64,000 nt of DNA from Engraulis encrasicolus (taxonomy: Eukaryota > Chordata > Actinopteri > Clupeiformes > Engraulidae), in NCBI RefSeq assembly GCF_034702125.1, contig NC_085867.1, forward strand, positions 49,241,898 to 49,305,897. Reading direction: 5' to 3'. Both the position numbers and the translations under genes were made by a program. Under the pieces are notes generated by a model, which was not told the DNA's origin, did not search any database, and was given only the letters and a program-made list of their open reading frames with translations. Shown here in pieces: positions 20,801 through 32,800 of this stretch. The stretch's first letter is position 1. Each line of letters starts with the position of its first letter.

Positions 20801-23800
20801 AACTGAAGAGAATATATGTTAATTTATTTCCATTTCATCGAGCAAAATAAGTATTTGATCCCCTGCCTATGGAACTAGAACAAGGCCATAAAGATTGTAT
20901 CTGAAGAAATTAAACTCAGATGTGCGGAATAATTTCACATACGTGCCAGATACAATGTATTTGTGGAAAAACATTTTGCATCTGCAGGTTAATTTTGTAG
21001 ATCTGCACACATATTTTGCATCTCCTAAAATAAAAAACGTACCTGTATAAATGTTTTGTAGTTGTGTGGCAGTAGGAGTGTGTACAAATGTGAATCTGTT
21101 TTGCCATGCTGTGCGAACCTCTTCCTGCTCGGAGCAGCAAGCACACAAGTGTGGATCGCTTTTACAAGTCTACGAATTTTGGCCCTCTTTTGATGGGGGG
21201 GGTGGGGTCAGAGGATGGAAGCCAATCAAAACACCGCTTATTGGCAAGTTATCGCTTTCCATGGGACCAATCAGAGGCATGGCTTGACTGCGGGATCAAG
21301 GCCTCTGTGTGTGCAGCGAGAACAGGCCCATTCACTCGTGCGTAAACACGACACAGTCCAGTAATAATGCAACTCTCACGACGGAGCTGTAATAACTACC
21401 GATACATAAATATAACTTGGAGTGCTAGTTATTAGGTTTCTGCAGGCTGACGATTCCGACGGAGCACCAACAGGTTGTGGATGACGCAGCCAAAGGTGAG
21501 TGGTTTATTGTTTTTTTTTCTAGTGAGACCGAACTACACGTTGTTTGTACCTGTACGTTGTTTGTGCTCAGATTGTGTCTCCAATTTCTGTAGCTCTAGT
21601 AGTAGCAGAGAGGTAGAGCTAGTAGGCCGCTATTCATGATGCAGGTGACTAGGTCTACTTGATGGGTTGTGTTGTTGTACACATTAGCATGAAGCCAGAG
21701 ATATTCTATTACTCTCTCTGATGAAGCCTTTTCGATATAGCCAGACAGAGGCAATCCCCCCCCCAGCAAATGACGGCTGTATGTTTTCTGTGTACCCCGG
21801 TGTGTACTAATTTGTATTTGGATCGTTCATGTATCAATATCATTGTATGAGAGTACGATGCTTGTCAGCCCGCTAGCATAGAACGAGATAGCTAATCGAT
21901 CGGATCCGCCTAGCTTGAAATGCTAGCGCCAGAGAGATAACACAACGTAGTCCTAACTATTCCTAGAATCTCTGCTAGCGTGGCTGTTGAGCCAGAGAAA
22001 AAAGATTCTTCACTCTCAGACAGGGTCTGATTCGCACTCTCAATGGTCTGACTAAGGTGCCAGGTTGACATTTTAGTAGAATTAGACTAATAACTAACTC
22101 TAGTATCCACGAGTTCTTCTTAACTTGGGTTGTATGATCGCTGTCATTCAATATGACATGTTCTCTGTGTGTTAGCTAGCTTCGATGACAGATACCTTAT
22201 TTGTTAGCTAGGTAGCCATTTAATGTTAGCTAGTGTTAACCAGACAGATGGGTATTCTTATCTCTAATGTTGTGTCTTGTGTGCGAAGAAACGTGAGTAA
22301 ACTTAATTATTTGATGTCTGCATGTGTTAGGCTACGGTGTATTATTTGGCAGGAGTTGTTTAAACTTTGTGTAATTTCAATCGCAGTGGTAGGTAGGCAG
22401 GCCTATTTTGTTTACCCCAAAGTGTGTTACTGTTTTATCTGCAGCTATTTTATCTGGATGGTTATTATTGTATCAGCCTACTTGTATTCATAATGCGTTA
22501 ATATATGTGTATAATGGATGTTTTTTTTGTATCATTATTTAGTCGATAATGAGGGAAACCTTGCCGTTTTGGTTGGCTATTCTGAACTTGTAATGGGGCA
22601 TTTGGTATCTAGCTATTAAGTCAGGCTAAATGCATATTTCTCTGAGCGGTGTTGTCGCACGTCCCGGAGATTTTTCCCGGAGGTTTTTCGTCTCTGTTTT
22701 TTTGTGGTCTGTTCGGGAAAATGGAATAACCTACCCGTGAGGTTTTGTACTTCCTCACATTGTCTCCCGTTGTGTAGGGCCTAAGTCAATTGGTCTCCAA
22801 ACCATTCACAAAAGCTGTTTTATTATTTTGATTAACCTGAGGGAGTTCAAACATTAGCGCGAAAGACAATACAACAATGCCAGCCATTATCAATCGAAAG
22901 GATTAAATGACGTGGTTAGTTTGCCAGGAGGAAAGTTATTTGTCATCTTTGCAACCTCCATCAATGTAGGTGAGTCATGACGATGTGATCATCAAACACT
23001 TGGGTTTGATAATGTTGTAGTGCTAGTGCACGTCTGTGGGCACGCACCATTGCTACGTCAACCTGGCCTTTCAGAAAATGTAAGAGTAGCTGATGTCCGA
23101 AAAAGAACGTGTTTCCAATGTGCTTGTTCCAAAATTGTTGTTCTGCCTTCCATATAACTCCATGCCCGAGTTTAGTTTCTCCCACGTAAATCTTATGGTG
23201 AATACCGCCACCTAGTGGACTTTCTCGCGGTACTGCGCCTTCAGCGCAAATCTACTTCCTGGTTAGGTTCCAGTGTTTTCAAGTGTTTTCTGTCGTTAAG
23301 ACACAGACTTCATCTCTCCCGCAATTTATATATTTTCACACTTGAGCCTTGGACAATATTAGTCTGTAAGTAATCATTTTGTGATGGATGTTGTTTGTAA
23401 CGACATTGCATTGATATTTTGATGTATATTCCTATCTATTTGCCTCAAGAAGTGATGTTCACTTTCCTGTAAAGTTTGGCTAGTCAGATTCTACTTAGCT
23501 AAAATAGGTCACGTTGTGTTGACTGAAAATAGATCGCTGGGTTGCTTGTAGATTTGTGTGTCGTGCAAATGTTGAAGTAAGTGAAACTGTTGTATGTTTA
23601 TTTCGTTTTCTGTTAACAGTTTTACAGTAAAGAGAAGTGTTAAGAGATGTATTGAGATTGGAAGTGCAAGTGTACAAAGTGAAAGTGCAAGAGAAAAGTC
23701 AGTAAGGAAATGAAAGAAAGAAAATAAAAGGACAAAATTACACTTCAGCTTGCTTTCTCTTGAACTGTTCGCTAGCTGTCTAGTTCTGCACCAGTAACGC

Positions 23801-29800: not shown

Positions 29801-32800
29801 TGCATGGTGCAACCTTTTTTTCATTTTTCAAATTATAAGTAGCACATTTACACCCTACTATAGTATCACAAGGGATTGGTGACTTTGGTGAATAAAATAG
29901 GAAGTAAGTATATTTCAGCCCTTAAGACTCAGAGAGAGAGGAATTAGTTAAATGCGATTTAATGAGAAGATATTTGACTATGCATTTAACAGAAGGTAGA
30001 CAGTCTTTGGCGTAGGTCCAATCATCAGCCCGGGTCTTCTTGTGCCAGTAGAGCCTGATGTAGCTGTGCAGCAGGAAGCGGACCTTTAACCCCGCAGACA
30101 GGTAGACTGTACCAACCTGGTGGTGGTGGGGATGGAGGAGGAGATTTTTAACCACCTGAACCTGCAACAGCAAGAGTTAGACATGTCACTATAAAGGGAA
30201 GTGGTGGTTGCTGCTTGGCTCTGCAAAATGCACATGTGGCATTCGAATCTTACTAGCAGAACTAGCGCTGGCTACTCTCCTCTAAATCAACACAAAATAT
30301 CAAGTTATTGTGTGCCTTAATAATGCAACATGTGCAAATGTTCAAGATGCCTTGCCTTGCATTTATTTAATAACATGACTTTTCAAATCACAATTTTATG
30401 CAACAGTATGTATACATTTTATTTTTAAATGATTGAATGAATGAATGATAGCTTGAGTTGTAACTCCTTGCATTTTGTTTTAAAAACAATTAATTCTGTT
30501 AAACATTCTTACGCAAAGGACTTTTCCCTATTTGAATGTCATACAAAACTGAAATTAAAAATTGAGTGTTTGCTCCTTATTTTTTGTTTTGTTTTGTTTT
30601 GTTTTAACTCAGCACGAGCCATTTGTTAAAGGTCTCACGGTTTCCCCTCTTTGAATGGTATACATTGTATAGTAGCAGTAGGATAACATTATCTGTAAGT
30701 TTTGACTGATACGCCCAACCCAAGAACTGCAGTCACTATATAGCAGGGGCGGGGAACTTTTTTTTCATTCAAAGGGCCGTTGAAGTCCTCCAAGGGCCTC
30801 ATTATGAACACGAACCAGGATTTCCCCCGACCCCACCTTCTCTAAGCCCGCCCCTTATATATAACTGAACTCTATTGCAAACATAATTGGTAAGAGTCCT
30901 TTACAAAATGTGTTATATTTCATGTGAAGCGGCATAACATTAAACTCATGTCGTTGGCTGGATAAAACAGACACAGGTTCCCCACCCCTGCTGAAGGCTA
31001 CAGAATGTATTGAACAAGCTTGCTATTGAAAATTAGAAATTAAAATGTTGGCTGAGTATGGAGCAGCAAACTAGGCTGTGCAATTTGCCACAAGCCATGA
31101 CGTGAATTCCATTGCCATAGTAGGCTACTGAGTACTGAATATTGGGGTTTTGTTGTTGTTGTTGTTGTTTAACAGTGGTTCCTTCCAGAAGCTGCATGAC
31201 ATTGGTAGGGCCTATGGCTTGACCAACTCGGCAATGCAATACATGCAATTATCTATGGAAGTGCTAGCTGAAGCAATTGTAGCCTCCCCCCATGTCAGTA
31301 TCAATGACGTCTGGGGGTCTCTTCTATGACTAGTCCGGTTTCAAAAGATTGGAGCTTGTTTGAAAACTACCTAATGCAACATAGGCTAACTACTTTCCAA
31401 GCATACAGTTTAAAGGTGCTTGGACACACACACAGGAGGCGTCAGGACCCTGTTGCTGGGTATGTGTGCGACAGACACAGACACGATGCCAAAGAAGCTA
31501 GTAAGCCACAGATAATTATGTTGCCAATACTGGACTTCATAAAGGGACAGAGGGGGCAAACCTTTCGGCAAACTTCGCACCTGATTGTGTGTGACTCCTC
31601 CATATCGGTCTTCACAAGAAAGAGAGATTGCGTCCTTCTGCTGCCTGCCTGAGCTGTGGTTAGATCCACGTTGTTTTCAGTCATTCCTGGCGAAGCCTGA
31701 TTGGTTGGCAGTAAGCGATGTTTTGATTGGCTCTCACCCTATGACCCCACCCCCCGTCAAAAGAGGGCCAAAATTCGTAGACTTGTAAAAGCGATCCACA
31801 CGTGTGTGCTTGCAGCTCCGAGCAGGAAGAGGTTCGCACAGCATGGCAAAACAGATTCACATTTGTACACACTCCTACTGCCACACAACTACAAAACATT
31901 TATACAGGTACGTTTTTTATTTTAGGAGATGCAAAACATGTGTGCAGATCTACAAAATTAACCTGCAGATGCAAAATGTTTTTCCACAAATACATTGTAT
32001 CTGGCACGTATGTGAAATTATTCCGCACATCTGCATTTTATTTCTGCAGATACAATCTTTATGGCCTTGTTCTAGTTCCATACCTGCCAACTGATTACAG
32101 TTCCGGGCCCACAGACCAGATGGGCAATTCCGATCAACTTGTCATCTGAATTAAAGACACCTGTACATACTAACATGCATAAAAGACACATTGAATCAGG
32201 GGAATCAGTCCATAGCATGAGTGAATCAGTCACACTCCAACCTCACCAGCATGGGAAAGACCAAAGAGTGGTCAAATGATATCAGGGACACGATTTTAGA
32301 CCTGAACAAAGATTAAATGGCCTGCAAAGCCACAAGAAAGAGACTGGGTATTAATGACTCAGCTGTTGATGCGTTTCTTCCAAAATGTGAGGAATACAAA
32401 ACGACTATCCATCAGCCTGTCTGGGGTTCTATACAAGATTTGACCTTTTGTAGGGATTTGATAACCATGAGAACAGAAGGAAATCACCCTAGAGTTGTAC
32501 GGGATGAACTAGGCAATGATATCAAAGCTACTGGGACCAAAATCACTGAGAACACTACTGGTAGCACTTAATGCCACAGAGGTTTAAAATCCTGTAGTGC
32601 ACACATGGTACCTCTACTTCAGAAGGAACCTGTGCAGTCCCACTTGAGGTTTGCCAACGGACATCAGACTGGTTTAGGATATGATAAGGAGGGGCTGTAG
32701 TCAGATGAAACCAAAATCAAGCTGTTTGGCATTATCACAATTCATTGTGTTTTGAGAAAGAGTGCTGCTGTCTATGATCCCAAGAACACCCTCCTCACCA

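What the first reader, a model, noticed from the sequence alone, without database searches (positions are those of the whole stretch)
20868..32082. An 11.2-kb TIR transposon carrying TRIM gene fragments, of unassigned superfamily
Seen: about 365-bp inverted ends starting TATGGAACTAGAACAAGG, exact 6-bp flanks CCTGCC, and a clean interruption of a Tc1. The interior holds TRIM exons (B-box, coiled coil, PRY) but no transposase I recognise. Known: large cargo-bearing DNA elements in fish are few (Teratorn, Mavericks), and none has this terminus to my knowledge. Inference: a non-autonomous transposon that captured an innate-immunity gene, possibly part of how fish TRIM families spread.
Basis: partly seen in the sequence, partly recalled or inferred. 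Interest (0 to 1): 0.92.

Follow-up and report, generated by a model that had tools for sequence, protein, structure and literature searches.

The report
Fish transposon carrying broken immune gene
An 11.2-kb DNA transposon in what is likely a fish genome, likely of the little-known IS3EU kind, contains broken, intron-separated pieces of a TRIM immune-type gene that it likely picked up from its host; whether such transposons helped to spread TRIM genes in fish is untested.

Summary
Two inverted ends (20868-21247 and 31705-32082; 363 of 380 aligned columns identical) bound an 11,215-bp unit. It is flanked by an exact, non-extendable 6-bp repeat CCTGCC and interrupts a Tc1 that is 1,611 bp without it. 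The Tc1 lies between exons that look like aggf1. "Unassigned superfamily" can be improved: the ends read TATGG..CCATA. IS3EU transposons have TA..TA termini and usually 6-bp duplications (PMC10045372); fungal IS3EU end TAYGG..CCRTA (PMC12730594). Pfam found no transposase in six frames, so it is probably a non-autonomous IS3EU-type element. Inside, three TRIM stretches (B-box, coiled coil, PRY) lie in gene order on one strand, broken by stops and a frameshift, with splice signals at several borders; the coiled coil is 79% identical to a TRIM protein of the anchovy Coilia grayii. This points to DNA-level, not mRNA-level, acquisition. No fish genome could be searched, so a second copy, an autonomous partner and any role in TRIM spread are untested. 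Verdict: real; new variant of a known kind; moderate interest.

The parts
20868..21247 (+). left terminal inverted repeat, begins TATGG
31705..32082 (-). right terminal inverted repeat, ends CCATA on the + strand
20862..20867 (.). target-site duplication CCTGCC, left copy
   Evidence: chance 94 of 200,000 draws
32083..32088 (.). target-site duplication CCTGCC, right copy
20659..33490 (+). Tc1-type transposon interrupted by the unit; 1,611 bp without it; inverted ends 20659-20858 and 33292-33490; transposase broken by stops and frame changes
24316..24448 (+). TRIM B-box exon piece, one stop in the aligned row and probably frameshifted, followed by GT at 24449
24686..24724 (+). possible remnant of the next TRIM exon (13 residues like LRTFKEKLEGLND of P0001)
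   Evidence: weak alone (E=1.1), in the right order
25103..25316 (+). TRIM coiled-coil exon; AG at its 5' border, GT donor at 25317; stops in the aligned rows and one frameshift
26827..26967 (+). PRY part of a PRY-SPRY exon; AG acceptor ends at 26826; SPRY part not found
21761..21797 (+). 37-nt direct repeat, copy 1 (95% to copy 2); the pair brackets the TRIM segment; origin unknown
27271..27307 (+). 37-nt direct repeat, copy 2
27898..28307 (.). nested MITE-like palindrome, arms of about 70 nt, K2P 0.128
29707..29830 (.). second nested palindromic repeat, 44-nt arms K2P 0.048
29985..30176 (-). coding-like open stretch after an AG, no relative found; possible second passenger exon
   Evidence: 30003-30107; no hit

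Best explanation
This is an 11,215-bp unit bounded by 380-bp inverted ends and an exact 6-bp duplication inside an old Tc1; it is likely a non-autonomous IS3EU-type transposon, predicted to be moved by an IS3EU transposase made elsewhere in the genome, and it likely took up an intron-bearing piece of a host TRIM gene before this jump. Shown: ends, duplication, normal-length Tc1 without the unit, TRIM pieces in gene order with splice signals at several borders, no recognisable transposase. Inferred: the superfamily (from termini and duplication length only), trans-mobilisation by a DDD/E transposase acting on the TATGG ends, DNA-level capture (for example during gap repair after excision, a mechanism recalled for other gene-capturing DNA transposons), and capture before insertion. 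The TRIM piece has no match to the RING side or the SPRY part and is broken by stops and a frameshift, so it is predicted to make no working TRIM protein.
For: Inverted ends 95.5% identical, exact 6-bp duplication, Tc1 of 1,611 bp when the unit is left out. Termini TATGG..CCATA plus a 6-bp duplication equal the published IS3EU features: TA..TA always, duplications usually 6 bp (PMC10045372); TIRs over 30 bp ending TAYGG..CCRTA in fungal IS3EU (PMC12730594). TAYGG starts at 75 of 63,996 positions of this window. IS3EU is reported from killifish genomes. IS3EU elements with extra genes are known in fungi (TET/JBP and alpha-kinase genes; Styx, whose transposase points to IS3EU). TRIM: three stretches on one strand in protein order match P0001 of Coilia grayii at E=1e-10 (residues 119-160), 1e-17 (215-285) and 2e-10 (320-364), separated by intron-sized gaps with GT/AG at several borders. 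Order of events: TIR arms differ by K2P 0.041 (0.011 over positions 51-326), the interrupted Tc1's arms by 0.126, and the arms of a MITE nested in the interior by 0.128, so the interior looks older than the insertion.
Against: The superfamily rests on a 5-base end motif, which includes the two terminal bases, and the duplication length; in what I read TAYGG is stated only for fungal families. No transposase or relic was found in the unit, no second copy is known, and no named IS3EU end could be compared. The MITE dating assumes that its arms were alike when it inserted, and a second palindrome gives 0.048, close to the TIR value, so it gives no clear order. Three stops inside aligned rows, one sure frameshift (coiled coil, two frames needed) and a probable second one (B-box, by eye) in about 490 coding bases are more decay than a 4% TIR divergence would lead one to expect if the TRIM piece was whole at the last jump; it was probably already broken then, or arrived otherwise.
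Confidence: 0.64

Rival explanations
1. A smaller IS3EU-type element landed in the Tc1, and the TRIM fragment with its repeats arrived later by insertion or segmental duplication; the transposon never carried TRIM.
For: TRIM-type genes are expanded in European anchovy (PMC13403563 passages), so stray copies are plausible. A 37-nt direct repeat brackets the TRIM segment and could mark the edges of a later insertion. The TRIM piece is more decayed than the TIRs.
Against: A 37-nt repeat is longer than the target duplications of the DNA transposons I know (recalled), and among the 17 inverted pairs listed in the interior none is a long pair bracketing the TRIM exons (the pairs that span them have 16-28 nt at 77-88%). 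A MITE in the interior has arms as diverged as the Tc1's, which suggests old captured DNA.
Confidence: 0.25
2. The element belongs to another group with 6-bp duplications (Polinton/Maverick, Dada, hAT6) or to an undescribed superfamily, not IS3EU.
For: 6-bp duplications are also given for Polinton, Dada (6-7 bp) and hAT6. No transposase is present to decide.
Against: Dada-U6 and Dada-U1 have no terminal inverted repeats, and Dada families mostly sit in snRNA or tRNA genes. No Polinton gene scored in Pfam in six frames. The TATGG..CCATA ends match the fungal IS3EU pattern.
Confidence: 0.17
3. It is a once-autonomous IS3EU element whose own genes decayed beyond recognition, with the TRIM fragment as a side acquisition.
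For: CCAAT or ATTGG boxes near the inner edges of both ends and a coding-like minus-strand stretch at 29985-30176 without known relatives could be remains of transposon genes.
Against: No integrase-core hit in six frames, while a recalled fish-type integrase-core fragment scored E=3.5e-37 with Pfam rva_4. Of five coding-like stretches scored in the unit, three are the TRIM exons and one is the opposite strand of the B-box stretch.
Confidence: 0.08
4. Assembly error or two unrelated insertions that happen to face each other.
For: Only one assembly was seen; reads were not available.
Against: Exact 6-bp duplication, Tc1 of 1,611 bp with both ends, paired inverted ends whose outer 36 bases are identical; no N in the window.
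Confidence: 0.03

Closest known systems
IS3EU / GingerRoot DNA transposons
   Same: 6-bp duplication, TA..TA termini, TATGG..CCATA ends within the fungal TAYGG..CCRTA pattern, TIRs over 30 bp; non-autonomous members exist (17 of 45 Repbase families are autonomous)
   Different: TIR of about 380 bp, 11.2 kb long, no transposase found, carries pieces of a vertebrate TRIM gene; no sequence comparison with a named family was possible
Gene-bearing IS3EU of rust fungi (TET/JBP families) and Styx of Zymoseptoria
   Same: IS3EU, or a transposase pointing to IS3EU in the case of Styx, plus additional genes
   Different: those are described with their own transposase and gene sets; here only broken host gene pieces in a vertebrate
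Pack-TYPE transposons of plants
   Same: non-autonomous DNA transposons that capture coding DNA (abstract start in search listing)
   Different: described there as found in plants; here a vertebrate and an IS3EU-type end
Teratorn (medaka)
   Same: large mobile DNA element in fish that holds more than a transposase
   Different: a fusion with a piggyBac-like transposon, about 180 kb (abstract start in listing; that the partner is a herpesvirus is recalled)

Membership tests
IS3EU | 6-bp target-site duplication | tested here: met
   CCTGCC/CCTGCC, not extendable; rule from PMC10045372
IS3EU | TA..TA termini | tested here: met
   TATGG..CCATA; rule from PMC10045372
IS3EU | TIRs over 30 bp ending TAYGG..CCRTA (rust-fungus families) | tested here: met
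   380-bp TIR beginning TATGG; rule from PMC12730594 section 3.1.3
IS3EU | IS3EU DDD/E transposase | tested here: inconclusive
   none in six frames with Pfam; its absence is what a non-autonomous member would show (17 of 45 Repbase families are autonomous), so it neither makes nor breaks membership
IS3EU | sequence similarity of the ends to a named IS3EU family or to an autonomous copy in the same genome | not testable with these tools
   no repeat library; no fish genome in a collection I could reach; the genome search not answered
Dada | insertion in snRNA or tRNA genes; no TIR in the U6 and U1 families | tested here: not met
   inserted in a Tc1, 380-bp TIR; rules
Polinton/Maverick | integrase, DNA polymerase B and other viral-type genes | tested here: not met
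   no such Pfam hit in six frames; gene list recalled
Polinton/Maverick | 6-bp duplication | tested here: met
   rule
hAT6 | hAT transposase with 6-bp duplication | tested here: inconclusive
   duplication length fits; no transposase to judge
TRIM gene (tripartite motif) | RING, B-box, coiled coil, then PRY-SPRY | tested here: inconclusive
   B-box, coiled coil and PRY present and broken; for residues 1-118 and 365-500 of P0001 only two chance rows (E=2.0 and 3.4) fall in the unit

The most novel reading that the evidence does not exclude
IS3EU-type transposons in anchovy-like fish act as gene-capturing vehicles that copy intron-bearing TRIM genes to new chromosomal sites, and so are one engine of the scattered TRIM expansions of fish.
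Probability: 0.1. Interest if true: 0.85.

Novelty: new variant of a known kind. Interest (0 to 1): 0.48.

Why it matters
TRIM families expanded many-fold in fish, and zebrafish trim35/hltr copies lie on 15 chromosomes, often in clusters (PMC3137616 passages). The explanations in the passages I saw are tandem duplication and, for intronless medaka copies, retrotransposition (PMC2657112 passages); dispersed copies with introns need another route. A TIR element holding an intron-bearing TRIM piece makes one such route directly testable: look for the same ends around TRIM copies. It would also extend gene-carrying IS3EU elements, which I met in print only for fungi, to a vertebrate.

Tried and rejected
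Polinton, Dada and hAT6 as the source group: see rivals. A hidden transposase: Pfam in six frames with stops read as X (besides PRY only DUF4234 at E=1.7), ten short stretches (besides the B-box only HEWD at 0.14 and ABC_tran_CTD at 0.19; one of the ten, 26798-26995, was not in the PRY frame) and four sequences, one of them the control: no transposase in the unit. PDB sequence searches with the short TRIM stretches were weak: coiled coil best E=0.97 with an unrelated protein, PRY best E=0.19 with a butyrophilin. The TRIM reading therefore rests on P0001 and Pfam. P0001 itself matches butyrophilin, TRIM58, TRIM21 and TRIM7 B30.2 chains, and TRIM72 over residues 119-479. A second passenger gene at 29985-30176 (-): coding-like (with a recalled human-like codon table), but no relative in PDB sequences, in the protein database (6 candidates, none scored) or in Pfam. 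A stretch at 29327-29530 gave nothing. A weak Listerin hit for 31445-31738 (-) (E=0.005, below cut-off) was not pursued. Other copies of the ends: none in the window, none by exact pattern in viral contigs or prokaryote genomes, neither of which is expected to hold fish DNA. Print: searches (listed 20 of 27, 20 of 48, 20 of 29, 40 of 43, 7 of 8, 3 of 3 and 0 papers) showed no title or abstract start about a TRIM-carrying DNA transposon in fish or an IS3EU element with a vertebrate gene; most subscription journals are not in that library. The label TRIM35/A33-like for the gene is recalled; NCBIfam, made for bacterial and archaeal proteins, gave no name to P0001.
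Full report
The observation. The window holds an 11,215-bp unit at 20868-32082 with inverted ends. Repeat search gives 338 nt at 97% plus an inner 51 nt at 86%; a global alignment of the two ends gives 363 identities, 15 mismatches and 2 gap columns, K2P 0.041, and only 3 mismatches in positions 51-326. The end sequence occurs nowhere else in the 64 kb by blastn. Outside both ends stands CCTGCC. The bases beyond it differ, so the duplication is exactly 6 bp. In 200,000 random draws from this window, 94 pairs of 6-mers at that spacing matched.

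The target. The unit sits in a Tc1-type transposon with its own inverted ends at 20659-20858 and 33292-33490; without the unit and one CCTGCC, that Tc1 is 1,611 bp. Its right part scores with HTH_SB (E=6.5e-9) and HTH_Tnp_Tc3_2 (3.3e-5) in one frame and DDE_3 (2.1e-4) in another, all below the curated cut-offs; a 53-residue piece alone had no hit. The Tc1's ends differ by K2P 0.126, more than the unit's 0.041, which fits an older Tc1. The neighbourhood is host gene DNA: stretches with FHA (18879-19061), OCRE (36992-37141) and G-patch (12683-12793) domains on the minus strand, which I read as aggf1, so the unit lies in what is probably an aggf1 intron. The closest TRIM relative found, 1 of 2 candidates, is from Coilia grayii, an anchovy, which suggests, but does not prove, a clupeiform source.

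The superfamily. The literature gives one. [quoted passage not shown] In PMC12730594 (passages and section 3.1.3 read), rust-fungus IS3EU make 6-bp duplications, have TIRs over 30 bp and end with TAYGG..CCRTA. The unit's TATGG..CCATA ends and 6-bp duplication fit all of these. TAYGG begins at 75 of 63,996 positions here, so the fit of one end by chance is about one in 850; the other end follows from it because the ends are inverted copies. Dada (6-7 bp) mostly sits in small RNA genes, and its U6 and U1 families have no TIRs (passages). Polinton also makes 6-bp duplications, but no Polinton-type gene scored in the unit. IS3EU is reported from killifish (passages). I therefore call it IS3EU-type, provisional until an autonomous relative or a named family with the same end is compared.

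No transposase. Pfam scans of six frames with stops read as X gave PRY and one chance hit (DUF4234, E=1.7), at E up to 1 for two frames and up to 5 for four. As a control, a recalled fish-type integrase-core fragment scored 3.5e-37 with rva_4 and 9.3e-7 with rve, so an intact core of that type would have been seen; a strongly decayed or different one might not. That control was not verified as IS3EU. In a scan with a recalled human-like codon table the unit gave five stretches above the threshold: three are the TRIM exons, one is the opposite strand of the B-box stretch, and one is a minus-strand stretch at 30003-30107 without relatives in the searches made.

The TRIM piece. A database search with the coiled-coil stretch gave 1 protein from 2 candidates: P0001, 500 aa, 79% identical over 98% of the 43-residue query, with B-box, TRIM coiled-coil, PRY and SPRY domains. 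Tblastn of P0001 on the window places residues 119-160 at 24316-24447, 194-231 at 25103-25216, 215-285 in another frame at 25146-25358 (running past the exon end) and 320-364 at 26830-26967; a short match (169-181 at 24686-24724, E=1.1) is only suggestive but in order. The other rows, E=0.057 and above, are low-complexity or chance; two of them fall in the unit on the minus strand (25171-25251 and 30073-30144). Apart from these, residues 1-118 and 365-500 have no match in the unit. PRY as a short stretch passes Pfam's cut-off (E=3.5e-8); the B-box does not. GT follows the B-box piece at 24449, GT follows the coiled-coil exon at 25317, and AG precedes the coiled-coil and PRY pieces. So the copy kept introns, which points to genomic DNA, not mRNA, as its source. 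It is broken by three stops inside aligned rows and at least one frameshift and lacks the RING side and most of the ligand domain.

When was it captured? Arms of a MITE nested in the interior (27898-28307) differ by K2P 0.128, like the Tc1's (0.126) and more than the unit's ends (0.041); a second palindrome gives 0.048. If the arms were alike at insertion, the first MITE was in the interior before the unit jumped, and the same would hold for the DNA around it. This favours carriage of the interior at the last jump but is indirect. A 37-nt direct repeat (21761-21797 and 27271-27307, 95%) brackets the TRIM segment and may mark joins; I could not test it. The two orders of events are told apart by a comparison that I could not run: a second copy or an orthologous site.

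Mechanism. Shown: paired ends and a 6-bp duplication in a Tc1 that is otherwise of normal length. Inferred: a single insertion of the whole unit. Inferred from IS3EU biology: an integrase-like DDD/E transposase, made elsewhere, cuts at the TA ends and joins them to target sites 6 bp apart. Inferred: host DNA entered between the ends, for example by template switching during gap repair. No function for the carried piece is claimed.

What is known. Fungal IS3EU elements carry additional genes (TET/JBP and alpha-kinase), as does Styx, whose transposase points to IS3EU; plant Pack-TYPE elements capture coding DNA (listing). My searches showed no title or abstract start about an IS3EU element with vertebrate gene content or a TRIM-carrying DNA transposon in fish. 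A European anchovy genome paper (abstract and passages) reports a large share of DNA transposons and expansion of TRIM16 and A33-like families; in the passages seen it links the two only in general words.

Limits. One copy, no fish genome reachable (genome search not answered), no repeat library, superfamily by termini only.

Noticed in passing
12683-37141, minus strand: Stretches with G-patch (12683-12793), FHA (18879-19061) and OCRE (36992-37141) domains, read as aggf1; the transposon lies between the FHA and OCRE stretches.
   Followed up: partly
51214-58587, plus strand: Acyl-CoA dehydrogenase gene (N-terminal, middle and C-terminal domain hits); an open stretch at 53915-54499 runs from the middle domain into repeat-like sequence.
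   Followed up: partly
61376-61525, minus strand: Stretch like the end of the WDR41 propeller (E=7e-10, below the Pfam cut-off).
   Followed up: no
2347-7279: Long overlapping open frames, with reverse transcriptase and RNase H hits in 3800-7279 and 4887-6257 and none in 2347-4002; looks like a DIRS-type retroelement, by recall.
   Followed up: no
40146-44074: Non-LTR type reverse transcriptase (RVT_1 E=3e-19 at 43079-44074); open frames at 40146-40964 (+) and 42877-43401 (-) share a near-identical peptide (GSFHVKSD...), as if an element with inverted ends sits inside it.
   Followed up: no
21222-21271 and 31524-31730: CCAAT or ATTGG boxes, three in each scanned end region (the one at 31524 lies further in): promoter-like edges from which genes might be read inward.
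   Followed up: no
29985-30176, minus strand: Coding-like stretch preceded by an AG, without relatives in the searches made.
   Followed up: partly
26104-26121 and 26959-26976: Identical 18-nt pieces AGGGGTGTCACGATAACC; the second overlaps the end of the PRY match, so a repeat insertion may have cut off the SPRY part.
   Followed up: no
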